Shown here piece by piece: positions 42,370-63,864 of a DNA stretch of 64,000 bases (the first letter of the stretch is position 1; every line of letters begins with the position of its first letter). Source of the stretch: Massilia cavernae (lineage in GTDB: Bacteria > Pseudomonadota > Gammaproteobacteria > Burkholderiales > Burkholderiaceae_D); the NCBI RefSeq assembly GCF_003590855.1, contig NZ_QYUP01000151.1, positions 1-64,000 on the forward strand, written 5' to 3'. The translations under genes and the position numbers were made by a program. The notes beneath the pieces are model-generated. The model was not told where the DNA came from. It made no database searches and saw only the letters and a program-made list of their open reading frames with translations.

Positions 42370-42413
42370 ATCTTAGTCTCCGAAGTTGACCCTAACCTGA
42401 ATACAAGCTGAAT
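42370..42413 (-). promoter_or_regulatory. TTCAG direct-repeat promoter of the dehydrogenase gene
   Basis: On the minus strand half-sites start at 42412 (TTCAGCTTGTA), 42401 (TTCAGGTTAGG) and a weak third at 42390 (GTCAACTTCGG), spaced 11 bp. Fifteen nt after the start of the third lies TAAGAT (42375-42370). Confidence 0.65.
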
Positions 42414-42518
42414 AGCATGTAAGGCTGAGGCCTCAAACGAACCGCACCGTACACCTCGAATTCTGGTGCGATATCAGCCTGCCGCAGGGCGAGGACGGAC
42501 AGGGATTGCGGGGATCTG

Positions 42519-43571
42519 TTATTTTCCCGCCGGTGCGACCTTGAAGCCGAGCAATGCGCCGCCAAAGTTCCCTGGTCCAGGCGCGACGGCGACATAGTAT
42601 CGCTTCAGTTCCGGCACCAGCATCGCGGTCTTTGCACCGTGCGCTGTCGGGACCTGCGCGAGCTCAACGTAGTCGTCCTTGCTCTTTTGCTGGACCACCT
42701 TGACGAATCCGTCACCCGCCGCGTAGATGCGGCGGTTGGCCTTGTCGTACTGTACGTCATTGGCGCGTTCAGGCGCGGCAAAACTCGCGACCGTCGCGCC
42801 CGTCTGCGTGTTCAGTACGACCAGCTTGAATGGCGCCCGGGTAATCACGAACAGCCGCTTCCCAGTCTCGTCCAGCGCGAGAGGAGACGGCTGCGCAGCC
42901 ACCGTGATCGGGAAGGTCCTGACAATCTTGAAGGTCTTCTTGTCGATCACCGCGACATGATCCTTGCCGGTCACGCTGGTGTACAGGTAAGGGCCATTCT
43001 TCTCGACCGCGACGGCCTTGAGCAGGTCGGTATCGAACTTCAATTCTCCCAGTTGCTTCCTGGTCTTCAAGTCGATCGCAGTGAAGAAGGATTCCTTCAG
43101 TCCCCCTTTGGCGCCGCCGGTCTGGATGAACAGGCGCCCACTGGCGGCGTCGTAGCCCATCGTGTTCGTGCCAGGTCGTAGCGTGATCGTGTCGATCAGC
43201 TCGTAGGTCGTGGCGTCGAGTATCTTGGCGCCTACGCGGCTATCGGCCACGATCAGGCGGTTCTGCTCCGGAATGACGATGAAGCCCTGCGGTTTGCCGA
43301 AGCCTCCCACCGACCGTTGATGGGCTCCTGTCGTCAGGTCGAACACTTCGACGGTCGATGTGTATTCGCCGGCGACGAACAGCCGGTTGCTCTTGACGTC
43401 GTAACTGAAGCGATCGAAATCACCGGTGTACTTCGGCAACTCCGCCTTGCTGAATGATTGCAGAACAAGCGCGGCCGGTGGCGCACCCGCGGCAAACGAT
43501 GCCGCTGGCTGGAATGCGAAGGCGATAGCGAGGATGCAGGACAAGCTGGACAGCGGCTTATTGAAAGGCAT
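42519..43571 (-). CDS. Periplasmic beta-propeller protein (YncE-like)
   Basis: A 350-residue protein with a signal peptide (CILAIAFAFQPAASFAAG). The mature part shows repeated blades of the YncE/YVTN style: NRLFVAGEYTSTVEVFDLTT, NRLIVADSRVGAKILDATT, GPYLYTSVTGKDHVAVIDK, KRLFVITRAPFKLVVLNTQ and RRIYAAGDGFVKVV. Such seven-blade propellers are periplasmic, often iron-regulated, and of uncertain role. CGGAG lies upstream of ATG 43571. The shared repeat promoter lies 60-90 nt upstream, placing it in the regulon. Confidence 0.85.
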   Translation of the reverse strand: MPFNKPLSSLSCILAIAFAFQPAASFAAGAPPAALVLQSFSKAELPKYTGDFDRFSYDVKSNRLFVAGEYTSTVEVFDLTTGAHQRSVGGFGKPQGFIVIPEQNRLIVADSRVGAKILDATTYELIDTITLRPGTNTMGYDAASGRLFIQTGGAKGGLKESFFTAIDLKTRKQLGELKFDTDLLKAVAVEKNGPYLYTSVTGKDHVAVIDKKTFKIVRTFPITVAAQPSPLALDETGKRLFVITRAPFKLVVLNTQTGATVASFAAPERANDVQYDKANRRIYAAGDGFVKVVQQKSKDDYVELAQVPTAHGAKTAMLVPELKRYYVAVAPGPGNFGGALLGFKVAPAGK

Positions 43572-43630
43572 ATTGAATTCTCCGGATAATGAGTTGGGCA
43601 CCCTGTGCGATATCGCACAGCCGCGAACAC

Positions 43631-43662
43631 ACTGTAAGCGCCCAACCTGAAATCAATCTGAA
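43631..43662 (-). promoter_or_regulatory. TTCAG direct-repeat promoter of the beta-propeller gene
   Basis: Half-sites start at 43662 (TTCAGATTGAT) and 43651 (TTCAGGTTGGG). Fifteen nt after the second start lies TACAGT (43636-43631). Confidence 0.75.
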
Positions 43663-43682
43663 GAAGCCGGACTCAATCGCCG

Positions 43683-45053
43683 TCAGATTTCGCTTGCCGC
43701 GGCGGCGGGCAAGTCGATGGCCACGGCCAGGCCGCGCCCGTCCGGGCCGGCGCAAAACTGCAGTGATCCACCATGGAGTTCGACAATCCGCTTGACAATC
43801 GACAGCCCCAATCCACTACCGCCCTGCCCGCTTCCGAGCACCCGGAAGAAGCGCTCGGTCAGCCGCTCACGGTCGTCGGCACTGACACCCGGCCCATCGT
43901 CGGACACCGAAAGGCGCGCCGTGTCCTCCAGCCAGCGGGCGCGGATTGTGATCTTGCAGCCAGGGCCACCGTAGCGCAAGGCGTTGTCGACCAGGTTGCG
44001 CAGCACAACCCGCAGCATGTCGGGATTGACGAACAGCGCATCGATGCCGCAGTCGACGCCAATCGTGGCGCCGCGCTGCGCTGCCGCCTCCTGGTGCGCC
44101 CGCACAGTGTCCTCGAGCAGCGGGGCGAGGGGTACGCTGGAACGCACCAGGTCGTGGCTCGCGATGGGATCGAGCCGTGCCAGCGCCAGCAGGCTGTCGA
44201 CCAGGCTGGTACTGCGCTCCACATCCTGGCGCAACTTCTGCAAGGAGCCGGCCAGGCCGGGATGCTGCCGCTGCAGCAGCTGGACGTGCATCTGGACGCC
44301 TGCCATCGGCGTCCGCAATTCGTGCGCCGCATCGGCTGTAAAGCGGCGCTCGGCCTGCATCGCCGCGTCGAGCCGGCCCAGCATGCCGTTGACGGCATCG
44401 ATGATCGGCAACAACTCTGCCGGCTGCCCGGCGTCGTCCAGCAGCGTCAAGTCGTCGCGCGACTTTTGCGCGATGCGGGTGGCAGTATCGCTGATCGGAC
44501 GCGTGGCGCGCCGGATAAAGAACCAGCTTGCCAACCCGAGCAACAGCAGCAGCGCTGCGGCGGGAAATGCCAGGTGTTCGGCGAGTTCAAGCAGGATGTC
44601 ATAGCGCTTTTCATAGTCCTGCCCCACCTGGACCATTGAACGCTGGTCGGCGCTACGCGTGACAAACACCCTCAGCTTGCGTCCATCCACCACGACATTG
44701 GCGAATCCCTTCTTCTTGCGGAACGAGGCTATATACGGGATCGCAGGCGCGCCGGCTGTGCGCTGGACCACCTTGCCGTCAACCACGATCTGGTAGTGGA
44801 TCTCCAGTTTTCGTTCAGCGCCGGCGTTCGCGCTGCGGTCGGCATGCAGGCCGCGTTCGTTCCAGTCGGTGGTCGCGGCCATGATCAGGTAGCCGGACTC
44901 CTTCAGTGCATCGTCGAAGACCGCATTGGTCTCGCGCCAACCGATCTGCGCGACGATGCTCAGCCCCGCCATCCACAAGGCGATACTGGTTCCCAGGATC
45001 ACCAGCAACAGGCGCCGGCGCAAGGAATAGTGGTCGCCAGGCCGGTCAGGCAT
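43683..45053 (-). CDS. Sensor histidine kinase, QseC/TctE type
   Basis: A 456-residue membrane kinase. TM1 lies at about 14-36 and TM2 at about 161-180. The periplasmic loop opens with WRETNAVFDDALKESGYLI, which resembles the 2CSK_N sensor of TctE/QseC kinases. HAMP follows, then the H-box RRFTADAAHELRTPMAG with His244. The N-box is in RNLVDNALRYGG and the G-boxes in SDDGPGVS and GSGLGLSIVKRIVEL. It overlaps the response regulator by 8 nt. Its ligand is unknown; TctE relatives sense tricarboxylates, QseC/PmrB relatives sense iron or other cues. Confidence 0.93.
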   Translation of the reverse strand: MPDRPGDHYSLRRRLLLVILGTSIALWMAGLSIVAQIGWRETNAVFDDALKESGYLIMAATTDWNERGLHADRSANAGAERKLEIHYQIVVDGKVVQRTAGAPAIPYIASFRKKKGFANVVVDGRKLRVFVTRSADQRSMVQVGQDYEKRYDILLELAEHLAFPAAALLLLLGLASWFFIRRATRPISDTATRIAQKSRDDLTLLDDAGQPAELLPIIDAVNGMLGRLDAAMQAERRFTADAAHELRTPMAGVQMHVQLLQRQHPGLAGSLQKLRQDVERSTSLVDSLLALARLDPIASHDLVRSSVPLAPLLEDTVRAHQEAAAQRGATIGVDCGIDALFVNPDMLRVVLRNLVDNALRYGGPGCKITIRARWLEDTARLSVSDDGPGVSADDRERLTERFFRVLGSGQGGSGLGLSIVKRIVELHGGSLQFCAGPDGRGLAVAIDLPAAAASEI

Positions 45054-45711
45054 CGAAGGGATTCAGACGGTATCCAAGGCCACGGATCGTCACGATCGTG
45101 GCGGCGCCAAGTTTTCGGCGCAGGCTGTGGATGTAGACTTCAACGGCATTGCTTTCGATCTCATCGCCCCAGCCGTACAACGATTCCTCGATCTGGGCAC
45201 GGGTCGTGATCTGGTCCTTGCGCTGCATGAGGGCGTACAGCACGTTGTACTCGCGCGGCGTAAGGTCGACGGCGGCCTGGTCCAGCCTGACCCGCCGTGC
45301 GATCGCGTCGAGCGTGATGCTGCCGTGCTGGAGCATGCTGCTGACATTGGTGCATTTGCGCCGTACGGCGGCCCGGATCCGGGCGGACAGTTCGTCCAGG
45401 TCGAACGGCTTGATCAGGTAGCCGTCGGCGCCGATGTCCAATCCCTCGACCCGCTCGGCCAGGGTATTGAACGCGGTGATCATGAGGACAGGCACGGCAC
45501 TGCCGCGCGCGCGCAGCCGTTCCAGCGTCCTGTCCCCGGACATGCCGGGCAGGCCCCGGTCCAGCAGCACGCAATCGTAGGCGTGCGTCATCAACGCCGT
45601 TTCGGCGGAATCGCCGCGCCGAACCCAATCCACCGCGTACTGGTCAAGCCGCAGCCAGGCCAGTATCGTTTCCCCGAGCGAGACGTCGTCTTCAACCAGC
45701 AGGATGCGCAT
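45046..45711 (-). CDS. OmpR-family response regulator
   Basis: A 221-residue regulator. The receiver has the acidic pocket VEDDVS, phosphorylation site Asp51 (VLLDRGLPGMSG) and Lys in LIKPFDLDEL. The C-terminal winged helix (DLTPREYNVLYALMQR, SNAVEVYIHSLRRKLG) is of the QseB/PmrA/TctD group. ATG 45711 is 10 nt after the porin stop, so porin, regulator and kinase form one operon. It is the natural candidate to bind the 11-bp direct repeats in this region, since OmpR-type proteins bind such tandem half-sites. Confidence 0.95.
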   Translation of the reverse strand: MRILLVEDDVSLGETILAWLRLDQYAVDWVRRGDSAETALMTHAYDCVLLDRGLPGMSGDRTLERLRARGSAVPVLMITAFNTLAERVEGLDIGADGYLIKPFDLDELSARIRAAVRRKCTNVSSMLQHGSITLDAIARRVRLDQAAVDLTPREYNVLYALMQRKDQITTRAQIEESLYGWGDEIESNAVEVYIHSLRRKLGAATIVTIRGLGYRLNPFDA

Positions 45712-45721: not shown

Positions 45722-46825
45722 TCAGAAGCTGTGGCGCACGCCGAGGTTGAAGGCGGCATCGCCCGTACCTGCTTCGGCATTGTTGCCCACGGTGTAGCCG
45801 GCGCCATTCTTGTTGCGGATCTTGGCGTAGGCCGTGTACAGGTTGGTGCGTTTCGAGACGGGATACGAATAGGCGACGCCCAGCTGGGTCGCATCCTGGT
45901 TGAGCGCCGTACGGTCGTCCTTGCTGATGTACGACGCCATGATGGTGCCGCCCAGTGCAGGAACCGAGGCGCCGGCGAGGTATTGCGCGCCGTCGGTGGT
46001 CGCGGTCGGCTTGACGCCGCCGTACGGGTTGTTCGCGTTCGGCAGCGGCGCGCTGTTCGGCCCCTTGTCGCGACCGAAGGCGCCGTACACCTTGGCCACG
46101 CCCAGGTCGTAGTTGGCCGCGATCACCGCGTTGCGCGCCGAGTCGCGGCTGGCGGCGGCGACCGGCGGCGTCATGGCCGCGCCGGTGGCAGCAGTGATGT
46201 CGTTGTTGCGGTTGTTGTAGCCAAGGCGGACATTGAGCGGTCCGCCGGCGTAGGCCAGCGCGACGCCGGCCTGGCGCCCGGCGATGCTGCTGCCGGCCTG
46301 CTCGCCGAAGGCATAGGCCAGTTCCGCCGACACGCCATGCACGGCTGGAGAGGCATACACCACCGTGTTGCTGGTGCGGCTATTGCTGCCGGCGGTCGGG
46401 AACAAGTTCTTGATATTGCCCGCGTATGCGGTGCCGAACGGATCGGCGACATTGCTCAACGTAAGGTAGTACGGTGTGTCCTGGCGGCCGAGGGTCAGCG
46501 CGCCCAGCGCTGCGCTCTTCAGGCCGACATAGGCCTGGCGGTTGAATATCGTTCCGGCCGCATCGATTTCGCCGGTGTCGATCTTGGCACCCAGTTCCAG
46601 CACGAAGATGGCGACCAGGCCGTTGCCCAGGTCTTCGCTGCCGCGGAAGCCCAGGCGCGACGCCGACCCCACACCACTGCTGATCTTGGTGACGGCACCT
46701 GCGACACCGCCGCTTTCGCGCACCAGGCCCGCATCGGCAATGCCATACACGGTGACGGAAGTCTGGGCCGAAGCAAATCCGGCGAATGCCAGGGCAAGGG
46801 TGCAGGCGAGCGAAAGTTTTTTCAT
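45722..46825 (-). CDS. Gram-negative porin (Omp32-like)
   Basis: A 367-residue outer-membrane porin with signal peptide (KKLSLACTLALAFAGFASA). QTSVTVYGIADAGLVRESGG is the first strand and SRLGFRGSEDLGNGLVAIF the typical early motif. It ends NLGVRHSF with terminal Phe, the outer-membrane assembly signal. Such trimeric porins admit small anions. AAGGAACC lies upstream of the ATG. First gene of the operon with the two-component system, and its promoter carries the repeat motif, which implies autoregulation. Confidence 0.93.
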   Translation of the reverse strand: MKKLSLACTLALAFAGFASAQTSVTVYGIADAGLVRESGGVAGAVTKISSGVGSASRLGFRGSEDLGNGLVAIFVLELGAKIDTGEIDAAGTIFNRQAYVGLKSAALGALTLGRQDTPYYLTLSNVADPFGTAYAGNIKNLFPTAGSNSRTSNTVVYASPAVHGVSAELAYAFGEQAGSSIAGRQAGVALAYAGGPLNVRLGYNNRNNDITAATGAAMTPPVAAASRDSARNAVIAANYDLGVAKVYGAFGRDKGPNSAPLPNANNPYGGVKPTATTDGAQYLAGASVPALGGTIMASYISKDDRTALNQDATQLGVAYSYPVSKRTNLYTAYAKIRNKNGAGYTVGNNAEAGTGDAAFNLGVRHSF

Positions 46826-46873: not shown

Positions 46874-46905
46874 AGTGTCGCCGCCGTACATGAACCCAAT
46901 CTTAA
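46874..46905 (-). promoter_or_regulatory. TTCAG-type direct-repeat promoter of the porin-regulator operon
   Basis: Degenerate half-sites start at 46905 (TTAAGATTGGG) and 46894 (TTCATGTACGG), 11 bp apart. GACACT (46879-46874) begins 15 nt after the second. Weaker than the other copies. Confidence 0.5.
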
Positions 46906-46954: not shown

Positions 46955-46986
46955 TTCAGGATCCATTCAGATTGATCCCGCAAGCT
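46955..46986 (+). promoter_or_regulatory. TTCAG direct-repeat promoter of the PstS-like lipoprotein gene
   Basis: Half-sites at 46955 (TTCAGGATCCA) and 46966 (TTCAGATTGAT), then CAAGCT (46981-46986) 15 nt after the second start. Confidence 0.65.
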
Positions 46987-47009: not shown

Positions 47010-48056
47010 ATGAACACAGCAGTTTTGGTCCGGCTGCGAACCGGTGCGGCGCTGGCACTGGCGTTGACGGGATGCGCGCAACTGGAACCCGGCGCCCCCC
47101 CGCCGCCCTATTCGCCCGAAATTGCCGTCGCGGGCTCACTGCGCGCTGCCGGCGCAGATACCATGGCCGCATTGTTGGACGACTGGTCGAACGGGTTCGG
47201 CCGCCATCACCCCCGCGCCTCGGTGCATACCGACCGCCGGTCCACGCTGTCGGCACAGGGTATGGCGGCGCTGCTGGACGGGCAGGCCGACATCGTGACC
47301 TTCGTGCGCGAACCCTTCGACAGCGAACGCGCCGCCTTCCAGGCACGCTTCGGCTACCCTTTGTCGACGGTGCGGGTGGCCGGCGGCAGCTACGCCACCA
47401 AGGGCGGCACCCACGCGATCGCGGTGTACGTCCATGCCAGCAATCCCCTGTCCAGCCTGACCCTGGCCGAGCTTGACGGCGTGTTTTCGCGCACGCTGCG
47501 CCGCGGCGCGCCGGCGACGGCACGCACCTGGGGCGACCTTGGCCTGGGCGGCGCCTGGCGCGACCGCCCGGTCAACGTGTACGGCATGCTCACCCGGCGC
47601 GCCAGCGGCAATCCACCGGGCATCGTCAATTTCATGAACGGGCGCGTGCTGCTCGGCGGCGAGTGGCGCGCCGACCTGCGCGAGCAGGTCGACCGCGAAG
47701 GAGAACAGTCGCTGGCCGCGATCGTCGCCCGCGTCGCCGGAGATCCGAACGGAATCGGCTACAGCGGCTTCGGCTATGCGCGCGCCGGCGTCAAGACGCT
47801 GGCCCTGGCCGAAGCCGCGGGCACGCCGTACTACGCTGGCACCCGCGGCGAGGTCGCGCGCCTCGACTATCCATTAAGCCGCAGTATCTACCTCGGCTTC
47901 AATGCGCCGCCAGGCATGCCGCTGCCCCCGTTGATGCGCGAGTTCCTGCGCTTCGTGCTGAGCGCGGAAGGGCAAGCGGCGATCGCGCGCGATCGCATGG
48001 CATTCATCCCGCAGGACGGTGCGCAGGCGGCGCGGGCGCGCGCGGCCATTCCCTGA
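47010..48056 (+). CDS. PstS-like (PBP_like_2) substrate-binding lipoprotein
   Basis: A 348-residue protein. The signal ends LALTGC, so Cys22 should be lipidated. The mature part is a phosphate-binding-protein-like domain with the signature TWGDLGLGGAWRDRPVNVYG and a C-terminal YPLSRSIYLGF ... FVLSAEGQAAI. Real phosphate PstS proteins sit with pstCAB, which are absent. GGAGG precedes the ATG. It is one of four such orphans here, each under the same promoter motif. The bound ligand may be phosphate, a phosphorylated compound or another oxyanion. Confidence 0.85.
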   Translation: MNTAVLVRLRTGAALALALTGCAQLEPGAPPPPYSPEIAVAGSLRAAGADTMAALLDDWSNGFGRHHPRASVHTDRRSTLSAQGMAALLDGQADIVTFVREPFDSERAAFQARFGYPLSTVRVAGGSYATKGGTHAIAVYVHASNPLSSLTLAELDGVFSRTLRRGAPATARTWGDLGLGGAWRDRPVNVYGMLTRRASGNPPGIVNFMNGRVLLGGEWRADLREQVDREGEQSLAAIVARVAGDPNGIGYSGFGYARAGVKTLALAEAAGTPYYAGTRGEVARLDYPLSRSIYLGFNAPPGMPLPPLMREFLRFVLSAEGQAAIARDRMAFIPQDGAQAARARAAIP

Positions 48057-48152: not shown

Positions 48153-50372
48153 CTAGAATCGCTTGCGGACGGAGAACGCCAGGTTGCGCGGCGCGCCTGG
48201 GAGAATCTGCAGTTCGTTCATGAAGCCGGCGCTTTCATAGTAGGTCTTGTCGAACAGGTTGCCGACCTTGGCCGTGAAGTCGTAGTCGCCCTTGCTGTAA
48301 TACAGCCCCAGGTCCGCAATCACGTAGGACGGCAGCTTGAGCACGCGGCGGTCCGCCGTGCTCGGGATATTGCCGGTGCGTTCATCGCTGTACACCACGC
48401 CGAAGCCGATGCCCAGTCCTTCGAGCGCCCCAGAGTCGATGTCGTAGCGCGACCACAGGTTGGCGCTGTTGAGCGGCGCGTTGGTCAGGCGCGCACCGAC
48501 TTGCGCCGCGTCGGCCGACTTGACGATGACGGCGCGGGTGTGGGCCCAGCCAGTGGCGATCTGCAGGTTGGGCAGCGGCTTGGCGTTCACCTCCAGTTCG
48601 AAGCCCTGTGCCCTCTCCGAGCCGATCTGCTGGGCGCAGGTGCCGCGCGGGCATGCGAAGCTGCTGAGCACGTTTTCCTTTTCGATGCGGAACAGCGCGA
48701 ACGTGGTGCGCAGCTTGTTGTTCATGAAGTTCGCCTTGGCCCCCACTTCGAACTGCCTGGCCGATTCCGGGGTGAAGGGATTGTTCCCATTGATGTCCTG
48801 GCTGTTCGCCGGCGCCGGCACGTAGGAGGTGCTGTAGCTGGCGTAGTAGGTGGTCTCCTTGTCCGGCTGGTACAGCAGGCCGGCCAGCGGCAGGACCTTG
48901 GAGGTCGACTTTTCGCCCGGCGCCACGTTCGGCACCTTCAGTTCCTTGAAGCGCTGTTTTTCGGCCGTGTAGCGCAAGCCCAGGTTCAGTTTCCAGTGCG
49001 CCGCCAGGGTCATCAGGTCGGATGCGTACACCCCCGAACTGGTGGTGACGGTGTAGCGCCGGTTCAGGTTCCCGGGCGTGGCCGGATTCACCGCCGGCAG
49101 CGAGTCGAGCGGCGCGGCGCGGCCGAATACCGGGTTGTAGATATTGATGTCGAGCGACTGTGGTCCCGTCGCCGGCCCGTTGAAGAACTGGATGCGGTTG
49201 GTGTCGAGGGTATCGCGGCCCGCGTTGACCCCGACGATCATTTTGTGGCCCACGTCCGCCGTGGTGAACGGCAGCGTGACATTGCTGTCGATGTAGTTGA
49301 ACTCGCGCGCGTTTTCCTGCTTGCGCGCGCGCCGCTGCAGCGTCACGCCGTCGGGCCGGATCGCCGTGTTGTCGTAGCCGCGCGCATCGTCGCTATTTTC
49401 GACGAAGCGCCCGGCCAGGCTCCACTTGACGTCGCCGCCGAAGGCATGGCTCAGCGACACTGTGGTGGCGTGGCCATCCTCTTTCAGCACATCGCCCGGC
49501 TCGTTGTAATGGGTAGTGATGGGCGCGATCTTCGTGATGTCCTTGTTCGGCGCGACCAGGTACTGGTCATACGCTGACTCCGAACGGCGGTACTCGAAGC
49601 CGATGGTCGCGCTGGTGGCGGGCGACACCTTCCAGGTAAAGCTCGGCGCTGCGTACCCGCCCTTGTTGTAGGCGCGGTCGCGGAAGGTATCGGTGTCGTT
49701 GGCCTGCGCCACGAAGCGGTACAGGAAGCTGCCTTCCGCATCGATCGGGCCGGTGACATCCATCGAGACGTCGTAGCCATTCGCGTCGCCCAGGCTGAGC
49801 TTGTCGCCGTGGTAGCCCGTGACCTTGGCGCCGAATTCCCCGCCGAAGCTTGCCTGCGGCTTCTTGCTGACGAGATTGACGAAACCACCCGGCTGCGCCT
49901 GGCCATACAGCACCGACGCCGGCCCCTTGACGACCTCGACGTGGTCGGTGCCGATGACCGGCGGCGACGAGAACCGTCCGGACAGGCCGGGCAAGCCGTC
50001 GACCATGATGGCGTTCTTGTCGTTGGCCCCGGTCTTGAAGCCGCGGATCGACATTTCCATGCCCGTGTTACCGGAGCGCTTGATACCCGTCATGTAGTTG
50101 TACAGGTCGGCCACGTTGACCACCTCGATGGCCTTCATGAAGGTATCCGTGTACGAGGCTACCGTGAACGGCGTATCGCGTACCGGCACGGCCAGCTTCA
50201 TCGCGCTGGCCGATCCGCTGCTGATGAAGTTGCCCTTGACTGTGACCTGTTGCATTGGTGGGGCCGCGGCGGCTTCCGGCGCGGGAGCTCCGTTCTGGGT
50301 GGCGGTCTGGGCGTGCGCCATTTGTGCGACGGCGAGTGCGATTGCCGATGCGAGCACGGTTCGATTCAACAT
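48153..50372 (-). CDS. TonB-dependent siderophore-type receptor 1
   Basis: A 739-residue outer-membrane receptor with signal peptide. The plug domain has DTPFTVASYTDTFMKAIEV and IRGFKTGANDKNAIMVDGLP, then HVEVVKGPASVLYGQAQPGG, the typical TBDT motif. The 22-strand barrel ends NLAFSVRKRF with terminal Phe. No N-terminal signalling domain, so it is transport only. A loop carries ACPRGTCAQQIGSERAQG with two Cys, matched in receptor 2. Lies 164 nt after a PstS-like gene, likely co-transcribed. Siderophore-family placement suggests a ferric complex, but the ligand is unproven. Confidence 0.93.
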   Translation of the reverse strand: MLNRTVLASAIALAVAQMAHAQTATQNGAPAPEAAAAPPMQQVTVKGNFISSGSASAMKLAVPVRDTPFTVASYTDTFMKAIEVVNVADLYNYMTGIKRSGNTGMEMSIRGFKTGANDKNAIMVDGLPGLSGRFSSPPVIGTDHVEVVKGPASVLYGQAQPGGFVNLVSKKPQASFGGEFGAKVTGYHGDKLSLGDANGYDVSMDVTGPIDAEGSFLYRFVAQANDTDTFRDRAYNKGGYAAPSFTWKVSPATSATIGFEYRRSESAYDQYLVAPNKDITKIAPITTHYNEPGDVLKEDGHATTVSLSHAFGGDVKWSLAGRFVENSDDARGYDNTAIRPDGVTLQRRARKQENAREFNYIDSNVTLPFTTADVGHKMIVGVNAGRDTLDTNRIQFFNGPATGPQSLDINIYNPVFGRAAPLDSLPAVNPATPGNLNRRYTVTTSSGVYASDLMTLAAHWKLNLGLRYTAEKQRFKELKVPNVAPGEKSTSKVLPLAGLLYQPDKETTYYASYSTSYVPAPANSQDINGNNPFTPESARQFEVGAKANFMNNKLRTTFALFRIEKENVLSSFACPRGTCAQQIGSERAQGFELEVNAKPLPNLQIATGWAHTRAVIVKSADAAQVGARLTNAPLNSANLWSRYDIDSGALEGLGIGFGVVYSDERTGNIPSTADRRVLKLPSYVIADLGLYYSKGDYDFTAKVGNLFDKTYYESAGFMNELQILPGAPRNLAFSVRKRF

Positions 50373-51672: not shown

Positions 51673-51704
51673 AGAATAGCCAATCAACATGAATGCAGCC
51701 TGAA
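51673..51704 (-). promoter_or_regulatory. TTCAG direct-repeat promoter of the binding protein-TonB receptor 1 unit
   Basis: Half-sites start at 51704 (TTCAGGCTGCA) and 51693 (TTCATGTTGAT); TATTCT (51678-51673) begins 15 nt after the second. Confidence 0.75.
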
Positions 51705-53780: not shown

Positions 53781-53803
53781 GATGAAGTCTCGCGTAGTTT
53801 TAG

Positions 53804-55602: not shown

Positions 55603-55710
55603 GGCTGATGTCCGTGTGTGTATACCGCCGCGCGAACTGGTCCGCGCGGCAAGCGGCCGCAAGGCCGTCGCATCATGAGGTAATGGGGTCTGGTCGGCGG
55701 CGCGCCCGGC

Positions 55711-56802
55711 TTATTTCTTGCCGGCGGTGCTCTTCCACTGATTAAGGAAGGCCATCCGCTTGGCTGCCGCGAGATACTGCAAGACGTTCGGATGAACCGG
55801 GATCGGCTTGACGTTGGCCGCGCCGATCGCGGCGATCAGGTCGGTCGCCGTGGTTTCGCCCTTGACGTCGAGGCGGATCGCGAACAGCTTGGAGTCGTTG
55901 GCGATGATGGTCTGGCCACGCTGCGACAGGATGTAGTCGGTCCACAGCTTGGCGGCGTTCACGTTCTTGGCGGACTTGTTAATGAACAGCACGCGCGACA
56001 TGATCAGGGTGTAGTCCTTTGGCAGCACTACGCCGATCGACGGATCGGTCTTGGCGCGCACCAGCGCGTACGATCCGAGCACGTTGTAGCCGATCAGGTT
56101 CTCGCCGGAAGAGATCCGCTCCATCATGGTGCCGGTGGACGACTGCACCCGCACCTTGGCCGTGCCGAACGCGCTGGTCAGGCCGGCGAACTGCTTGTAT
56201 TCGTGCGCATCCTGGGTCATGAACATGAAGCCCACCCCGGATTTCTCGATGTCGTAGGTGGTGACCTTGTCCTTGAACTTCGGCTTCAAGATCAGCTTGG
56301 CGAAGTCGGCATGGGTGGCCGGCACTTCGTTTGCCTCCACCAGGCGCTTGTTGTACACGATGGCGGCAGGCTCGAACGTGGTGCCGTAGGCAGAATCGTT
56401 CCAGACCGCCCAGGCGGGAATCTTCGATGCCTCGACCGAGCGGTACTTCAGCGCGTGGCCTTCCGACGCGAGCCGCATCTGCAGGTCCATCGCCGACGAC
56501 CACACCACGTCGGCGGTGCGCCCGCCGGCGGCCGTTTCGGAAATGAAGCGGTTGTATACCTCGGTCGAGTTCATGTCGTTGTACTCGACCGTGATTCCCG
56601 GGTACATCTTGTTGAAGTCCTTGATCAGCGGGTGCGCCGCCTTGCTGTCGGTGGCGCTGTACACCACCACCTTGCCTTCAGCCTTGGCCGCAGCGACGAT
56701 CCTGGCGTAGTCGGCCGGATAACCGGGCGGCACTTGCGCGGCTGCGGGGAAGGTGATGGCAGCCAGGGCGATTGCGCCGGCCAGTCGTTTGATCGAAATC
56801 AT
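55711..56802 (-). CDS. ABC transporter substrate-binding protein, FbpA/AfuA type
   Basis: A 363-residue periplasmic protein with a signal peptide (LAGAIALAAITFPAAAQ). VVVYSATDSKAAHPLIKDFN and VEYNDMNSTEVYNRFISE are typical of the class that includes ferric-ion binders and hexose-phosphate or phosphonate binders. The tandem Tyr pair that ligates iron in FbpA is not evident, so a non-iron ligand is quite possible. GGAG lies upstream. First gene of the importer row. Confidence 0.9.
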   Translation of the reverse strand: MISIKRLAGAIALAAITFPAAAQVPPGYPADYARIVAAAKAEGKVVVYSATDSKAAHPLIKDFNKMYPGITVEYNDMNSTEVYNRFISETAAGGRTADVVWSSAMDLQMRLASEGHALKYRSVEASKIPAWAVWNDSAYGTTFEPAAIVYNKRLVEANEVPATHADFAKLILKPKFKDKVTTYDIEKSGVGFMFMTQDAHEYKQFAGLTSAFGTAKVRVQSSTGTMMERISSGENLIGYNVLGSYALVRAKTDPSIGVVLPKDYTLIMSRVLFINKSAKNVNAAKLWTDYILSQRGQTIIANDSKLFAIRLDVKGETTATDLIAAIGAANVKPIPVHPNVLQYLAAAKRMAFLNQWKSTAGKK

Positions 56803-56869
56803 CGTGTTTATCTCCGTTATTTAGTTTTGACTACGTGTCGCATCTAGAAAAATCGCCTCGGGCCGCCCG

Positions 56870-57835
56870 CTAGCGCATCAGGCCCAGTTGCGCGGCCTGC
56901 TTGCCGTAAGCGGAGACCGCGCTGTTGACGTACGCTGTCAGGGCGTCCCCGGTCAGCGCGAATGGATACAGGCCGTATTGCGCCCTTGCTTTGGCAAATT
57001 GTGGGTCGGCCATCATGCGGTCGAAGGAGGCCACCCATTTACGGTAGTTTTCGTCGGATACCTGCTGTCCCATCCAGACGCCGCGGATGATCGGCCACAC
57101 CACATCGAATCCCTGTTCGCGCGCGGTCGGCACATTGGCGAGGCTGCCAGGGAGGCGCCGCTCTGACAGGACCGCCAGCACGCGCACGCCGCCGGCCTTG
57201 GCCATCATGGTCGCCTCCGACGCATCGCCGGAGACCACCTGCACGTGTCCGGCCTGCATGGCGGTGAACGCCTCGCCGCCACCTTCCAGCGCTACATAGC
57301 GCAGCGACTTGGGGTTGACGCCGCCAAGGCGGGCGATCATGGCCATCTTGATCCAGTCCTGGCCGCCGATAGTCCCGCCCATGCCGATCAGGAACCGTTC
57401 CGGATGCTTCTTGAGCGCCTTGACCAAGTCGCCCAGCGTGTGAATGCTGGAGTCGGCACGCACCGCCACCATGCCGTAGTCGGTACCCAGCGCGGCGACC
57501 CAGCGGACGTCGCCGGTGCCTGACTTGCCGAACTTGCCTTGGGCCAGGTTCAACAGCGAGCCGCCGGAAAATGCCACCAGCGTATCGGGGGCGGAACGGC
57601 GCTGTGCCGCCAGTGCAGTCCACGCGACCGCACCGACGCCACCTGGGACATAGCTGATGCGCATGCGCTGGGAGTCTTCCTGCACCGACGCATTCCATCC
57701 GGCCCGCACCAACTTGCACGTCAGGTCCATCGCGCCCGCAGGCTTGGATGGAACGATGCACTCCGGCGCGGCGGTGGCCGCGGAGCAGGCCAGCCACAGT
57801 GCGGCCGCCTGCCAGATAACACCAATGCTCTTCAT
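56870..57835 (-). CDS. Bug/TctC-family binding protein
   Basis: A 321-residue secreted protein (signal LWLACSAATA). VPSKPAGAMDLTCKLVRAGW, the glycine-rich AFSGGSLLNLAQGK and IGMGGTIGGQDWIKM match Bug receptors of tripartite tricarboxylate transporters. These bind carboxylates. No tctA/tctB genes are nearby, as is common for orphan Bug proteins in Burkholderiales. Upstream of the ABC importer in the same direction, 67 nt away, perhaps one transcript. A carboxylate ligand would fit the TctE-like kinase. Confidence 0.88.
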   Translation of the reverse strand: MKSIGVIWQAAALWLACSAATAAPECIVPSKPAGAMDLTCKLVRAGWNASVQEDSQRMRISYVPGGVGAVAWTALAAQRRSAPDTLVAFSGGSLLNLAQGKFGKSGTGDVRWVAALGTDYGMVAVRADSSIHTLGDLVKALKKHPERFLIGMGGTIGGQDWIKMAMIARLGGVNPKSLRYVALEGGGEAFTAMQAGHVQVVSGDASEATMMAKAGGVRVLAVLSERRLPGSLANVPTAREQGFDVVWPIIRGVWMGQQVSDENYRKWVASFDRMMADPQFAKARAQYGLYPFALTGDALTAYVNSAVSAYGKQAAQLGLMR

Positions 57836-57952: not shown

Positions 57953-57995
57953 TTCAGTTCGCGTTCAGCTTGTGTTCAGGTTCGGCCACCAGGCT
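57953..57995 (+). promoter_or_regulatory. Triple TTCAG repeat promoter of PstS-like gene 3
   Basis: Half-sites at 57953 (TTCAGTTCGCG), 57964 (TTCAGCTTGTG) and 57975 (TTCAGGTTCGG). CAGGCT (57990-57995) begins 15 nt after the third. An extra pair lies upstream at 57900 and 57911. Confidence 0.75.
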
Positions 57996-58032: not shown

Positions 58033-59037
58033 ATGAAAACACCCTCGTCCCGCACCCGCGCCAGCCTTGCGGCCGCGCTCTTGCTGGCCGCCGGCGGCAG
58101 CGCCGCGGCGCACGCTCCCGGCACGCTGCCCGCGCCGGATGCTCCCTATGTCACGGCGCAGGGCGCCGTGCGCGTGGTTGGCTATAACGATATGCAGGAA
58201 ATGCTCGAGGCGCTGAACCGGCTGTTCGCAAAGTCCCATCCCGGGATACGCTTCGAGCTGCAGCTGAAGGGAACCCGCACCGCGCCGCCCGCCTTGGCCA
58301 GCGGCGGCTCGCTGTTCGCACCCATGGGCGCCGAATTCTCGGATGCGGAACTGGCCGCCTACCGCCAGGTGGCCGGCCATGCGCCGCTGGCGATCCGGGT
58401 CGCGCATGCATCGCTCGATCCACGTGCGCTGTCCTCGCCGCTGGCCCTGTATGTCAACCACAGCAATCCCCTGCGCGAATTGACGCTGGCCCAGGCCATG
58501 GCCGCCTTCACTGCCGGCATTGACGGCCGCACGGCGCTGGTGTGGGGCGACCTTGGGCTGGGCGGCGCATGGGCCACCCGCCAAGTGCGGCTGTGCGGCC
58601 TTGCGCCCGATACAGCGCTCGGCATCTTCATGCGGCGCCACCATTTCGACGGCCGCCAGTATGCTTCCCACTTCCAGGGCTTCAGGCAATCGGCCGACGC
58701 GGTCAGCTGCGTCGCAGGGTCGCCGGCGGCGCTGGGCTTTGCCGGCAGCAACCGGGTCGCGCCCGGCGCCAGGATCCTGGCGGTTGCCCCGGCAAGCGGC
58801 GGGCACGCCGTCCTGCCCAGCGCCAGCGCAGTCGCCGCGGGCGGCTACCCGCTGGACCGCCATTTGCTGATTTATGTACGCAAGGTTCCGGGAAAACCGC
58901 TGGAACCGCTGGCCGAGGCTTACCTGCGCATGGCGCTGTCGCCTGCGGGACAGCAGGCGATCGGCAGCGGCACCCTGGGTTACCAGCCCTTGAATCCGCA
59001 AGAGCTTGCGGATGAGCTGGGCAAACTGGGAGAATGA
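58033..59037 (+). CDS. PstS-like binding protein, divergent copy
   Basis: A 334-residue secreted protein (signal ASLAAALLLAAGGSAAAHA). It keeps LVWGDLGLGGAWATRQVRLCG and the YPLDRHLLIYVRKVPGKPLEP end segment but has lost much of the glycine-rich oxyanion loop (LKGTRTAPPALASGGSLFA). This is the most divergent of the four PstS-like proteins and may bind something else. ATG 58033 follows AAGGAATACC. Own promoter with triple repeats. Confidence 0.82.
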   Translation: MKTPSSRTRASLAAALLLAAGGSAAAHAPGTLPAPDAPYVTAQGAVRVVGYNDMQEMLEALNRLFAKSHPGIRFELQLKGTRTAPPALASGGSLFAPMGAEFSDAELAAYRQVAGHAPLAIRVAHASLDPRALSSPLALYVNHSNPLRELTLAQAMAAFTAGIDGRTALVWGDLGLGGAWATRQVRLCGLAPDTALGIFMRRHHFDGRQYASHFQGFRQSADAVSCVAGSPAALGFAGSNRVAPGARILAVAPASGGHAVLPSASAVAAGGYPLDRHLLIYVRKVPGKPLEPLAEAYLRMALSPAGQQAIGSGTLGYQPLNPQELADELGKLGE

Positions 59038-59063: not shown

Positions 59064-59106
59064 TTCAAGCCGCGTTCAGGTTAAATTTAGTCTTGGCGTT
59101 CACTAT
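59064..59106 (+). promoter_or_regulatory. Triple TTCAG-type repeat promoter of PstS-like gene 4
   Basis: Half-sites at 59064 (TTCAAGCCGCG), 59075 (TTCAGGTTAAA) and 59086 (TTTAGTCTTGG); CACTAT (59101-59106) begins 15 nt after the third. Confidence 0.7.
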
Positions 59107-59137: not shown

Positions 59138-60367
59138 ATGAATAAATCCACTACCCGATTCGCGCGCGCCCAACGCAGGCACGCACGGCGGGACAGTGCC
59201 CCGCTGCTGCGCGCCAGTGTGGCCGCCTGCCTCGCGCTGGCCGCCGGCGCATGCGCGGCGTCGGCCGACCCGGCCAAGCCGCTGGCACCGCTGGCGCCGA
59301 ACCAGATGCTGCAGATGGTCTACCCGGCGCCTGCGACGACGGTGCCGCAGACGCCCGAGCAAACCGAAGCGTCGCGCCGGACCGGCCGCAAGGCGCCGAC
59401 GCCGGAAGTGCTGCAGCCGACGCTCGACAGCGCCCTGCCCTCCTACCGTCCGCGCACCGACATCAAGCTGTCCGGCACCTTCAAGGGCGGCGCGTCCGAC
59501 GTCTTGCCGGGCGTGGTCGGCCTGTGGTTCAAGCGCTTCCAGAAAATGTATCCAAACGTGAAAATGAGCATCATCCCGCCGTTCGCGGGCAGCCTGGGCG
59601 CCAAGGAACTGGTCAAGCAGAACGTCGATTTCGTGTTCGTCTCGCGCGAGCTGAAGCCGGAAGACCTGGTCGAATTCAAGGCCAAGTTCGGCTACGATCC
59701 CCTGAGCGTCCCGATCTCGGGCGGCTCCTACCGCCACTTCGGCTTCCTCGACGCGGTCGGCTTTTTCGTCCACAAGGACAACCCGCTCGAGAAGATCACC
59801 TTCGAACAGCTCGACGCCATCTACTCGAGCACGCGCCACCGCGGCGGCGCCGCCATCACCACCTGGGGCCAGCTGGGCCTGGGCGGCGAGTGGGCCGACA
59901 AGCCGATCCACGCCTACGGAATCAAGCCGTGGAACGGTTTCGAGGAATTCGTGCGCCAGCGTGTCCTGAGCAGCGACGGCAAGCGCGGCGAATGGAACGA
60001 CAAGGTCACATTCGAGAAAGTGGTATTCCCGATGGCGCGCCACGGCGCGGAAGACCGCTACAGCATCGGCTACACCGGCATGGCCTACCTCGACGCCGGC
60101 GTCAAGCTGATCCCGGTCGGGGAAACCGCGGCAGGCCCGTTCGATGCGCCGACGTACGAAAGCGTCGCGTTGGCGACCTACCCGCTGAGCCGCCTGATCT
60201 ACTTCAACCTGAACAAGACCCCGGGCAAGCCGCTGAACCCGGTGCTGGAAGAGTTCATCAAGTACATGCTCAGCAAGGAGGGCCAGCAAGCCGTGCTCGA
60301 TCACGCGATCTATGTTCCGCTGCGTTCCGGGCAAGCCGAAGGCGCACGCGCGCTGCTGGCCAAATAA
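59138..60367 (+). CDS. PstS-like (PBP_like_2) periplasmic binding protein, long form
   Basis: A 409-residue protein with a long basic N-region, then a hydrophobic signal ending in AAGACAASA. About 80 residues of Pro/Thr-rich linker precede the binding domain. That domain has IKLSGTFKGGASDVLPGVVG, FVFVSRELKPEDLVEFK, TTWGQLGLGGEWADKPIHAYG and YPLSRLIYFNLNKTPGKPL. The linker is absent from the other copies and could span part of the periplasm toward a receptor. GGAG precedes ATG 59138. A strong terminator follows. Confidence 0.87.
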   Translation: MNKSTTRFARAQRRHARRDSAPLLRASVAACLALAAGACAASADPAKPLAPLAPNQMLQMVYPAPATTVPQTPEQTEASRRTGRKAPTPEVLQPTLDSALPSYRPRTDIKLSGTFKGGASDVLPGVVGLWFKRFQKMYPNVKMSIIPPFAGSLGAKELVKQNVDFVFVSRELKPEDLVEFKAKFGYDPLSVPISGGSYRHFGFLDAVGFFVHKDNPLEKITFEQLDAIYSSTRHRGGAAITTWGQLGLGGEWADKPIHAYGIKPWNGFEEFVRQRVLSSDGKRGEWNDKVTFEKVVFPMARHGAEDRYSIGYTGMAYLDAGVKLIPVGETAAGPFDAPTYESVALATYPLSRLIYFNLNKTPGKPLNPVLEEFIKYMLSKEGQQAVLDHAIYVPLRSGQAEGARALLAK

Positions 60368-61379: not shown

Positions 61380-61395
61380 GGGTCACTGAGGCGCT

Positions 61396-63693
61396 CTAGA
61401 AGCGCGTACGCATCGACACCGCCACCGAACGCGGCGCGCCAGGCAGCACCGCCAGCTCGCCGAAGAAGCCGGCGCTCTCGTAGTACTTCTTGTCGAACAG
61501 GTTGCTGAACTTCAGGGTGAAGTCGAACTTGCCGAGGTCGTAGTAGATACCAAGGTCGGCCACCGAATACGACGGCAGCTTGAGCACCTTCAGCGCCGTT
61601 GCGCGCTGGGCCGCGGTGCCGTTGGTGAGCGTTTGCGGGATGGTGCCGGCACGTTCGCTGGTGTACACGAAACCCAGCCCGACACCCAGTCCCTTGAGCG
61701 CGCCCGAATCGATATCGTAGCGCGACCACAGGTTCATGTTGTTGCGCGGGGCGTTGTCCAGGCGCGCGCCCACCTGCACCGGATCGGTCGATTCGGTGAT
61801 GGTCGACAGCGTGTGGGCGATGCCGGCGGTGAACTGCCAGTTCTTGAGCGGGTTGGCGTTGATCTCGAACTCGATGCCTTGCGAGCGCTGTCCGCCGATC
61901 TGCGCAGAGCATGCGCCGGACACGCCGGCGTTGCATGCGGTGGCGATCAGCACGTCTTCCTTCTCGATGCGGAACAAGGCCAGGTTGGACTGCAGCCTGC
62001 CGTCATAGAGTTCGGCCTTGGCGCCCACTTCGACCTGCCTTGCCGTCACCGGCTTGAACGGATTGGCGCCGCTGGTGTCCTGCGAACTGGCCGGGGTCGG
62101 CACGTAGGAGGCGCTGTAGCTCGTATAGATCGTCCATTGCTCGCTCGGCTGGTACATCAGGCCGGCCATCGGCACGAATTTCTGGCTGCTCTTTTCGCGC
62201 TTCGGCGTCACCAGCGGGTATTTCAGGTCCTCGAAGCTCTGGTGCTCGCGCGCGTAGCGGCCGCCGATATTGAGCTTCCAGTGTTCCGACAGGGTCATCA
62301 GGTCGGAAAAATAGATGCCCTTGCCGGTCGATTTGGTGAAGCGGTCGGTGTCGCTGGCCACGCCGGTCGCGCTGACGTTGCGCACCGGATAGCTCGACAG
62401 CGGGCCGACCATGCCATGGCGCGGGTTGTACACCGAAATATCCAGCGAGGTCGGGCCGGTGGCCGGCGCATCGAAGTACTGCAGGCGCAGCGTGTCGGCG
62501 CTGTCGCGGCCCCAGCTCAGGCCGACCAGCACCTTGTGGCTGATGGCGCCAGTGTCGACCGGGATGGTCAGGCTGGTGTCGACCGAATCGTACTTGCGCT
62601 CGTTGTCCTGCACGCGCGCGCGGCGCTGGATGTCGACCAGGTTCGGACGGATCGCGTTGACGTCGAACGATTCCTGCGAATCTTCGCTGCGCACGCTGCG
62701 GGCGCCGAAGTTCCACTCCACGCCACTCTCGAACGAATGGGCCAGCGCCAGGTTGGCCGCGGTGCCGGACTCCTTCTGGAAGTCGTCCAGCTCCTGGTAG
62801 CGGGTGGCGATCGGTGCCACGCGGCCGATGTCGCGGTCCGGCGCGACCAGGAAGGTGTCGTAGGACACGCGCGTCTTGCGGTATTCGAGGCCCAGCGTGG
62901 CCGAGGTGCTGGGCGTGATATTCCAGCGCAGGCTTGGCGCGAGATAGCTCGACTTATCGTAGGTGGAGTCGCGCCACTTGTCGACGTCGCCCTTCTGCGC
63001 CACCAGCCGGTAGGCCAGCCTGCGGTCGTCGTCGAGCGGGCCGGTCAGGTCGAGCGAGACATCGTAGCCGGTGGCGTCGCCCAGGTCCATACCGTTGCCG
63101 GTGTAGGCAGTCGCCTTGACCGCCAGTTCGGCGGCGCGCTTGAACTTCGGCTTTTTCGAGATCATGTTGACAAAGCCGCCAGGCTGGGCCTGGCCATACA
63201 GCACCGAGGCCGGGCCCTTGACCACTTCGATATGGTCGACGCCGATGGTCGGCGGCGAACCGAAGCGGCCGGTCAGGCCGGGCAGCCCATCGACCATGAT
63301 CGCGTTCTTGTCGTTGCCGCTGGTCTTGAAGCCGCGGATCGACATGTCATAGCCGGTATTGCCGGCCCGCTTGATGCCGGTCATGTAGTTGTACAGGTCG
63401 GCTATATTGGTCGTTTCGATCGCCTTCATGAAGTCGCCGGTGTAGGCGGCTACCGAGAATGGCGTATCGAGCACGCTGGCGTCGCCCTTCATGGCGCTGG
63501 ATGCACCGGTGGCCACGAAGCGGCCGACAACCGTCACCGCCTGGACCGGGCCGGTGACCGCAGGGGCTTCCTGGCTTGTCTCGGCGGGTTCGCTGACGGC
63601 AGTTGCGTCCGGGGCGGCCTGGGCATAGGCGGCCTGGCCCATGCCGACCGGCAGGGCGGCCAGGATGGCGTACGCCAGCTTTTTCATCTTCAT
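61396..63693 (-). CDS. TonB-dependent siderophore-type receptor 2
   Basis: A 765-residue outer-membrane receptor, clearly paralogous to receptor 1. Both share YNYMTGIKR(A/S)GNTG, MSIRGFKT, GNDKNAIMVDGLPG, VVKGPASVLYGQAQPGGFVN and the terminal aromatic end (VAVSMRTRF). A loop again has two Cys (ATACNAGVSGACSAQIGGQR). No signalling extension is seen. GAAGGAGA precedes ATG. It is followed by the truncated flavin reductase, and its promoter carries repeat half-sites. Probably imports a related but distinct ligand. Confidence 0.93.
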   Translation of the reverse strand: MKMKKLAYAILAALPVGMGQAAYAQAAPDATAVSEPAETSQEAPAVTGPVQAVTVVGRFVATGASSAMKGDASVLDTPFSVAAYTGDFMKAIETTNIADLYNYMTGIKRAGNTGYDMSIRGFKTSGNDKNAIMVDGLPGLTGRFGSPPTIGVDHIEVVKGPASVLYGQAQPGGFVNMISKKPKFKRAAELAVKATAYTGNGMDLGDATGYDVSLDLTGPLDDDRRLAYRLVAQKGDVDKWRDSTYDKSSYLAPSLRWNITPSTSATLGLEYRKTRVSYDTFLVAPDRDIGRVAPIATRYQELDDFQKESGTAANLALAHSFESGVEWNFGARSVRSEDSQESFDVNAIRPNLVDIQRRARVQDNERKYDSVDTSLTIPVDTGAISHKVLVGLSWGRDSADTLRLQYFDAPATGPTSLDISVYNPRHGMVGPLSSYPVRNVSATGVASDTDRFTKSTGKGIYFSDLMTLSEHWKLNIGGRYAREHQSFEDLKYPLVTPKREKSSQKFVPMAGLMYQPSEQWTIYTSYSASYVPTPASSQDTSGANPFKPVTARQVEVGAKAELYDGRLQSNLALFRIEKEDVLIATACNAGVSGACSAQIGGQRSQGIEFEINANPLKNWQFTAGIAHTLSTITESTDPVQVGARLDNAPRNNMNLWSRYDIDSGALKGLGVGLGFVYTSERAGTIPQTLTNGTAAQRATALKVLKLPSYSVADLGIYYDLGKFDFTLKFSNLFDKKYYESAGFFGELAVLPGAPRSVAVSMRTRF

Positions 63694-63749
63694 ACTGTCT
63701 CCTTCATTGTTTTGTGTGTTGCGGGATTACGAACCTTTACGATGGCCCG

Positions 63750-63792
63750 AGTCTGGACCCGCAACCTGAAAGCAACCTGAACTCCACGTAAA
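63750..63792 (-). promoter_or_regulatory. TTCAG repeat promoter of TonB receptor 2
   Basis: Perfect half-sites start at 63781 (TTCAGGTTGCT) and 63770 (TTCAGGTTGCG), with a weak third upstream at 63792 (TTTACGTGGAG). CAGACT (63755-63750) begins 15 nt after the last. Confidence 0.78.
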
Positions 63793-63832
63793 TGTGCGTT
63801 CAGCAGCGCATTTCCCGTTGCCGCCCTGTTTT

Positions 63833-63864
63833 TTCAGGTTGCATTCAGGTTGCGGCGCCAATAT
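63833..63864 (+). promoter_or_regulatory. TTCAG repeat promoter of the gene at the window edge
   Basis: Half-sites at 63833 (TTCAGGTTGCA) and 63844 (TTCAGGTTGCG), then CAATAT (63859-63864) 15 nt after the second start. The closest match to consensus in the window. Confidence 0.78.

What the first reader, a model, noticed from the sequence alone, without database searches (positions are those of the whole stretch)
42370..63864. Eleven promoters with TTCAG direct repeats at exact 11-bp period, 15 nt from the -10
Seen directly: last half-site starts at 42390(-), 43651(-), 46894(-), 46966(+), 51693(-), 52304(-), 52374(+), 57975(+), 59086(+), 63770(-) and 63844(+). Each is preceded by one or two more half-sites at exact 11-bp steps, and each is followed after exactly 15 nt by a -10-like hexamer (TAAGAT, TACAGT, GACACT, CAAGCT, TATTCT, CAAGAT, TACGAT, CAGGCT, CACTAT, CAGACT, CAATAT). 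The best half-site is TTCAGGTTGCN. Established: OmpR-type regulators such as PhoB, PmrA and BqsR bind tandem half-sites of this period just upstream of -10. Inferred: the QseB/PmrA/TctD-like regulator at 45046-45711 drives a 22-kb regulon including its own operon. The half-site differs from the PhoB box and is close to, but not the same as, TTAAG-type boxes.
Basis: partly seen in the sequence, partly recalled or inferred. Interest (0 to 1): 0.9.

Follow-up and report, generated by a model that had tools for sequence, protein, structure and literature searches.

The report
Promoter boxes of a distant regulator
Eleven promoters of mostly nutrient-transport genes share a repeated DNA tag, and comparison with relatives suggests that ten of them are read by a regulator encoded on another contig, not by the look-alike regulator next door.

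Summary
All 11 sites are there, with half-sites at exact 11-bp steps and an xAxxxT -10 element 15 nt after the last half-site in 11 of 11. TTCAG-N6-TTCAG occurs 10 times in 42-64 kb; shuffles give 0.02.

The assignment to the neighbouring regulator (RR59, 45046-45711) is mostly not supported. RR59-type promoters aligned from 11 of 20 relatives carry TTAAG-N6-TTCA. The window has one such site, 46894(-), before RR59's own operon. The other ten fit better a model made from boxes within 9 kb of another OmpR-type regulator, RR178, on contig C178 and in relatives. Of 35 genomes, motif hits at E<=0.3 occur in 6 of 6 with RR178 and 0 of 29 without (cut-off set afterwards). In one relative, homologues of seven cluster genes (44-83% identical) lie with RR178 and TTCAG boxes in one 21-kb island.

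Best reading: an RR178-controlled transport regulon (TonB receptor, PstS-family binding proteins, beta-propeller), separate from its two-component pair in this assembly and interrupted by an unrelated pair with a similar box. The kind is known; no binding was tested.

The parts
42370..42412 (-). TTCAG box (3 half-sites) and -10 TAAGAT, towards an isocitrate/isopropylmalate dehydrogenase-family ORF (41185-42228)
   Evidence: gene family
43631..43662 (-). TTCAG box (2 half-sites) and -10 TACAGT, towards the beta-propeller gene
42519..43571 (-). YncE-like beta-propeller protein (350 aa)
   Evidence: weak family matches, below cut-offs; homologues near RR178 in G195, G176, G015 and G075
43683..45053 (-). 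HK59: histidine kinase with 2CSK_N sensor domain
45046..45711 (-). RR59: OmpR-family response regulator (PmrA/QseB/TctD-like, below each curated cut-off)
45722..46825 (-). porin, upstream of RR59 and HK59 on the same strand
46874..46905 (-). TTAAG-N6-TTCAT box and -10 GACACT: RR59-type site before porin-RR59-HK59
46955..46986 (+). TTCAG box (2 half-sites) and -10 CAAGCT, towards PstS-family gene 47010
47010..48056 (+). PstS-family periplasmic binding protein (PBP_like_2)
   Evidence: 59% homologue in the G195 island
48153..50372 (-). TonB-dependent siderophore-type receptor; no box directly upstream
   Evidence: TIGR01783 293.5 bits, cut-off 223.5
50537..51610 (-). PstS-family binding protein
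   Evidence: 83% homologue in the G195 and G176 islands
51673..51704 (-). TTCAG-N6-TTCAT box and -10 TATTCT, towards 50537-51610
   Evidence: narrow preference: 15.7 against 13.5
51735..52241 (-). ORF without family match (start chosen by me)
52284..52326 (-). TTCAG box (3 half-sites) and -10 CAAGAT
   Evidence: 16.0 against 12.0
52352..52394 (+). TTCAG box (3 half-sites) and -10 TACGAT
52443..52586 (+). small ORF (47 aa) with signal-like N terminus
52716..57835 (-). ABC ATPase, double permease, binding protein and TctC-like protein; no box found upstream on this strand
57953..57995 (+). TTCAG box (3 half-sites) and -10 CAGGCT
58033..59037 (+). PstS-family binding protein
   Evidence: 57% homologue in the G195 island
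59064..59106 (+). TTCAA/TTCAG/TTTAG box and -10 CACTAT
59138..60367 (+). PstS-family binding protein (409 aa)
   Evidence: 64-67% homologues in G195 and G176
61396..63693 (-). TonB-dependent siderophore-type receptor
   Evidence: TIGR01783 287.3 bits, cut-off 223.5
63750..63781 (-). TTCAG box (2 perfect half-sites) and -10 CAGACT
63833..63864 (+). TTCAG box (2 perfect half-sites) and -10 CAATAT
63954..64000 (+). start of a 502-aa binding protein with one recognised PBP_like_2 domain and a similar-length N-terminal half (continues to contig position 65459)
   Evidence: 60-61% homologues in G195 and G176

Best explanation
The ten TTCAG-type sites are activator boxes of one OmpR/PhoB-family response regulator, RR178, encoded with its kinase HK178 on another contig (C178:33149-33811). 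Inferred mechanism: phosphorylated RR178 binds head-to-tail on TTCAGGTTNNN half-sites 11 bp apart; the last half-site lies where -35 would be and the -10 follows 15 nt after its start, so the regulator recruits RNA polymerase to promoters of TonB receptor, PstS-family binding-protein and beta-propeller genes. The eleventh site, 46894(-), is the TTAAG-N6-TTCAT autoregulatory box of the neighbouring pair RR59-HK59, which looks like an insertion into the RR178 regulon. Shown by computation: the sites, their geometry, their link to RR178 across genomes, and gene linkage in relatives. Inferred: binding, activation, signal and ligand.
For: (1) Boxes scoring 25-35 bits, with a matrix from the ten window sites, lie within 9 kb of RR178 in G000, G195, G176, G211 and G075 and G015 (28.7 and 38.1 bits); the best box in each of 20 RR59-orthologue loci scores 3.3-20.7 and the high ones are TTAAG-type. 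Background of 77 loci: 0 of 1,204,522 positions over 25 bits. (2) In 35 genomes, hits at E<=0.3 in 6 of 6 with RR178 and 0 of 29 without (Fisher 6e-7); at E<=1, 6 of 6 and 7 of 29 (p 0.001). RR59 presence does not predict hits (1 of 17 with, 5 of 18 without). G015 had been included as a presumed negative. (3) Models from RR178-linked and RR59-linked sites (10 each, none from the window) assign 10 of 11 window sites to RR178 and 46894(-) to RR59. (4) In G195 and G176, homologues of seven cluster genes lie on the same contig within about 20 kb of RR178. (5) The 502-aa binding-protein gene at 63954 is found in 3 of 392 family genomes, G000, G176 and G195, each with RR178. (6) Recognition helix: RR178 has N..V..SR; RR59 orthologues have N..V..HN or HH, RR59 itself HS; PmrA N188 and N196 read bases (PMC4660055 passages).
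Against: No binding or expression data. The E<=0.3 cut-off was chosen after seeing the result, and the next RR178-negative genome is at 0.40. Sites in relatives were found with the window matrix, so point 3 is partly circular; preference is narrow at 51693 (15.7 against 13.5) and 52304 (16.0 against 12.0). The C178 site itself had only E 3.5 with model R1, and model R2 contains it. RR59 differs from its orthologues at the PmrA-196-like position (S for N), so its specificity may have changed. G132, without RR178, has a 32.5-bit TTCAG box next to a TctD-like RR, and the window's genome has a 74% relative of that RR on C31. The profile has only 6 RR178 genomes, two of them (G195, G176) close kin. 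No box was seen directly upstream of RR178 itself.
Confidence: 0.78

Rival explanations
1. The neighbouring RR59 reads all eleven boxes; its specificity shifted from TTAAG to TTCAG after it entered this cluster.
For: Adjacency; RR59 box half-sites (TTAAG, TTCAT) are close to TTCAG; RR59 has HS where orthologues have HN or HH in the recognition helix; 63770, 63844 and 43651 also score 14-16 bits with the RR59 model.
Against: 46894(-), before RR59's own operon, is still TTAAG-type. TTCAG boxes and homologous genes occur beside RR178 in genomes where the RR59 search gave no match at E<=1e-72 (G015 listed with 0; G195, G176, G211 and G075 absent from the 50 listed matches). 10 of 11 sites prefer the RR178 model.
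Confidence: 0.1
2. Another RR of the genome, above all the TctD-like RR on C31 whose recognition helix also has N..V..SR, reads the boxes.
For: Its relative in G132 (74% identical) sits by a TTCAG/GTCAG array; its helix matches RR178 at the compared positions.
Against: Orthologues (77-90%) occur in 12 of 12 same-genus genomes looked at, all without RR178, and their 4-kb loci have best scores of 3-16 bits; 11 of these 12 have no profile hit at E<=1 and one has E 0.75. The C31 locus here has no TTCAG pair and a best score of 13.4. I chose 15 loci, not all.
Confidence: 0.07
3. Cross-talk: RR178 and RR59 both bind the cluster, RR178 tightly and RR59 at the intermediate sites such as 51693(-) and 52304(-), so two signals are combined.
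For: Boxes are one or two bases apart per half-site; 51693(-) is TTCAG-N6-TTCAT and scores 15.7 and 13.5. PhoB-TctD co-regulation of shared promoters is known in P. aeruginosa (PMC4513871, passages).
Against: No such mixed design is shown in relatives; scores are not affinities.
Confidence: 0.25

Closest known systems
BqsR (CarR) of Pseudomonas aeruginosa, TTAAG-N6-TTAAG operators (PMC4682146, passages and section 7)
   Same: OmpR-family activator; pentamers 6 bp apart; arrays with shared pentamers; the last pentamer overlaps -35 and also serves RNA polymerase.
   Different: Pentamer is TTAAG, not TTCAG; a genome-wide spread of operators is reported there, against one main cluster here.
CreB/BlrA cre-tag TTCACnnnnnnTTCAC (PMC3660660, one passage)
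   Same: Same 11-bp period, half-site one base away (TTCAC).
   Different: RR178 scores 147 bits against the CreB model (cut-off 273); target genes differ.
PmrA/BasR of enterobacteria (PMC4660055, passages)
   Same: Head-to-tail DNA-binding domains on tandem half-sites; RR59 and RR178 score 214 and 216 bits on the PmrA model.
   Different: Both are below its cut-off of 330; RR178 lacks the H195-N196-like pair (mapping inferred, PmrA not aligned here).
UzcR of Caulobacter (PMC8963506, passages)
   Same: Metal-type two-component regulator with TonB receptors and efflux pumps among its targets.
   Different: Motif given there as CATTAC-N6-TTAA; wide genomic binding; no sequence comparison was made here.
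TctD of P. aeruginosa (PMC4513871, passages)
   Same: Small transport regulon with autoregulation.
   Different: The motif is in a figure I could not see; RR59 scores 188 on the TctD model, cut-off 337.

Membership tests
OmpR/PhoB-family response regulators (RR59, RR178) | Receiver domain plus winged-helix Trans_reg_C domain | tested here: met
   RR59. RR178: Trans_reg_C over cut-off at C178:33581-33808 and receiver match at C178:33155-33487
OmpR/PhoB-type tandem box | Direct repeats at 11-bp steps upstream of -10 | tested here: met
OmpR/PhoB-type tandem box | Bound by the regulator and activating transcription | not testable with these tools
   needs EMSA, DAP-seq or RNA-seq
Heavy-metal regulators CzcR/CopR/SilR (TIGR01387) for RR178 | Score over curated cut-off 279.2 | tested here: not met
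   235.2 bits, best of the list; HK178 213.2 against 292.55
PmrA / QseB / TctD for RR59 | Score over curated cut-offs 330 / 345 / 337 | tested here: not met
   214.1 / 205.9 / 188.1
PhoB regulon | TGTCAT-type half-sites and PhoB over cut-off | tested here: not met
   half-sites are TTCAG; RR178 177.8 against 296.2, RR59 157.9
CreB cre-tag | TTCAC-N6-TTCAC | tested here: not met
   no site has two TTCAC half-sites; 52304(-) has one
Phosphate-binding PstS proteins | Match to PstS-family proteins | tested here: met
   50537-51610 to PDB 4omb at 3.5e-58; 57970-59037 at 6.7e-38; all below the TIGR02136 cut-off
Phosphate-binding PstS proteins | Conserved phosphate-pocket residues | tested here: inconclusive
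   segments GSDT, GSST and MSR of 4omb read differently in both aligned proteins; that these form the pocket is recalled

The most novel reading that the evidence does not exclude
Two two-component systems with nearly the same box meet in one island: RR178's regulon, clustered around RR178 in relatives, has here been parted from it, given separate promoters with their own TTCAG boxes, and invaded by RR59-HK59, which keeps a TTAAG/TTCAT box one or two bases away. The pair at the PmrA-195/196-like positions (HN or HH with TTAAG/TTCAT, SR with TTCAG or GTCAG) would be a two-residue code that keeps the circuits apart, and can be tested with natural proteins.
Probability: 0.3. Interest if true: 0.6.

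Novelty: new member of a known kind. Interest (0 to 1): 0.45.

Why it matters
It shows that the nearest regulator gene can be the wrong one even when it belongs to the right family and has a nearly identical box. It gives a box (TTCAGGTTNNN, 11-bp steps, 15 nt to -10), a likely regulator and a defined set of targets for a transport regulon for which my searches (listings only) showed no description. It also offers natural pairs for testing how OmpR-family specificity diverges. The transported substrate is unknown: TonB siderophore-type receptors here and PepSY/2Fe-2S reductases in relatives point to a metal chelate, PstS-type proteins to an oxyanion; neither is settled.

Tried and rejected
Chance: rejected. 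Neighbour RR59 as reader of all sites: rejected for ten. C31 TctD-like RR: considered, unlikely. PhoB or CreB box: half-sites differ. A 550-aa ORF at 59251-60903, first used as a query, is a shadow frame; its 42% match is in a wrong frame and is dropped. The true gene is 59138-60367. The matrix at a loose cut-off of 9 bits is not specific: 244 hits in 1.78 Mb of other loci, many of them AT-rich Acinetobacter. The genome-contig search for RR59 gave mostly 50-60% Acinetobacter relatives, not used further except as that background. C104 and C55 pattern matches scored 5-11 bits and were dropped. Order-wide search for RR178 found only the own genome in 399. Of the RR59 orthologue loci, 11 of 20 were aligned; the other 9 were left out because no comparable box stood out (two of them, L165 and L169, show TTAAG-type boxes). 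G176 and L196 were left out of the training set as near-copies of G195. Papers were used only as search listings, or passages and one section as named; the ColR and other listed papers and the papers were not opened.


Full report
Observation. The 11 sites are real and at the stated coordinates. Exact TTCAG pairs in 42001-64000 pile up at spacing 11 (10 pairs; any other spacing from 5 to 40 at most 1), with 0 in the first 42 kb and 0.02 in shuffles. In 11 of 11 an A and a T stand at the second and sixth positions of a hexamer 15 nt after the start of the last half-site; at other offsets at most 2 of 11. Leave-one-out matrix scores are 12.2-41.8 bits. Each site faces a start codon, in three divergent pairs (46894/46966, 52304/52374, 63770/63844).

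Genes. Downstream of the sites lie a beta-propeller, a porin with RR59 and HK59, four PstS-family binding-protein genes in the window, a TonB receptor, the start of a 502-aa binding protein that continues past the window, one dehydrogenase-family ORF and two ORFs without a known family. A second TonB receptor (48153-50372) and an ABC operon (52716-57835) have no box directly upstream. The contig ends at 66325, with a further weak box at 65515(+) before a 184-aa secreted-looking ORF.

Where else. Strict pattern: 3 matches in the own genome, all on this contig. With one mismatch: 44 matches, control 27; among the exact ones is a triple repeat on C178. There it lies downstream of a second OmpR-type pair, RR178 and HK178, and before another beta-propeller gene. 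It scores 33.7 bits with the window matrix, though the profile model R1 gave it only E 3.5.

Which regulator. RR59 orthologues (60-72% identity) are in 50 of 392 family genomes, none of the 16 other same-genus ones listed. Of 20 loci fetched, 11 could be aligned with the window site 46894(-): TTAAG-N6-TTCA in 12 of 12 rows. RR178 orthologues are in 5 of 294 family genomes and, by a looser search, also in G015, where the gene holds a run of N. Every one of these six genomes has strong TTCAG boxes within 9 kb of RR178. In a 35-genome test, hits at E<=0.3 occur in 6 of 6 RR178 genomes and 0 of 29 others; at E<=1 the figures are 6 of 6 and 7 of 29. The cut-off was set afterwards, the own genome supplied the model, and G195 and G176 are close kin. 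One of the seven others, G132, has a true tandem array next to a TctD-like RR, so this kind of box is not private to RR178.

Two models from sites outside the window split the window sites 10 to 1. 46894(-) goes to RR59 (22.4 against 18.6); 51693 and 52304 are close calls.

Gene linkage. In G195 and G176 homologues of seven C59 genes share an island with RR178: beta-propeller 51%, 47010 protein 59%, 50537 protein 83%, 184-aa protein 44%, 57970 protein 57%, 63954 protein 60-61%, 59138 protein 64-67% (best tblastn matches, not tested for reciprocity). In G195 the coordinates run from about 771 to 792 kb. Several of these genes follow one strong box there (L195:9612-) on one strand; in the window they have separate boxes. 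G075 and G015 keep beta-propellers, a TonB receptor and a 2-hydroxycarboxylate transporter near RR178; G211 keeps a solute-binding protein, a beta-propeller and PepSY-type reductases. The 63954 gene is in 3 of 392 family genomes, each with RR178. No RR59 match was listed for these relatives.

Recognition helix. By spacing to PmrA N188 and H195-N196 (passages of PMC4660055), RR59 orthologues have N/HN or N/HH, RR59 N/HS, RR178 and its orthologues N/SR or N/SK, the C31 and G132 regulators N/SR. This fits TTAAG/TTCAT for the first group and TCAG for the others. It is an inference; PmrA itself was not aligned.

Rival on C31. Its orthologues are in 12 of 12 same-genus genomes looked at, none with RR178 and 11 of them without a profile hit at E<=1.

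Mechanism (inferred). As for BqsR, whose last pentamer overlaps -35 (PMC4682146 section 7), RR178 would occupy the -35 region and recruit RNA polymerase. Signal and ligand are open; the binding proteins resemble PstS but differ at segments that I recall as its pocket.

Verdict. A real, compact regulon of a known kind with a box not found described in my searches (which cover open-licence papers only and were read as listings except where passages are named).

Noticed in passing
57900-57915 (+): An extra exact TTCAG-N6-TTCAG pair 75 bp upstream of the 57975 site, out of the 11-bp phase and without the -10 geometry.
   Followed up: partly
L224 (G132), 5235(-): TTCAG/GTCAG tandem array (32.5 bits) between a TctD-like two-component pair and a CzcA-type efflux operon in a genome without RR178.
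   Followed up: yes
L262 (G195), 10007-11437(+): A second kinase, 61% identical to HK178, inside the island without a recognisable response regulator beside it in the fetched stretch.
   Followed up: partly
L251-L257 and C31-type loci: Upstream of C31-type TctD-like regulators of same-genus genomes a conserved GTCAG..CTCAG..GCAAG array before TATAAT: perhaps that regulator's own box.
   Followed up: partly
60454-61386 (-): ORF below the TonB receptor with a weak reductase-type (DmmA-like_N) match, as in the PepSY/2Fe-2S reductases of the relatives' islands.
   Followed up: partly
52716-57835 (-): ABC operon resembling PhnSTUV (all below curated cut-offs) with a TctC-like protein, without a TTCAG box upstream.
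   Followed up: no
L172 12776-15841 and L195 14891-17983: RND efflux permeases of the MdtB/MdtC kind close to RR178 in two genomes; L195 has a weak box (9.9-12.5 bits) before its efflux operon.
   Followed up: partly
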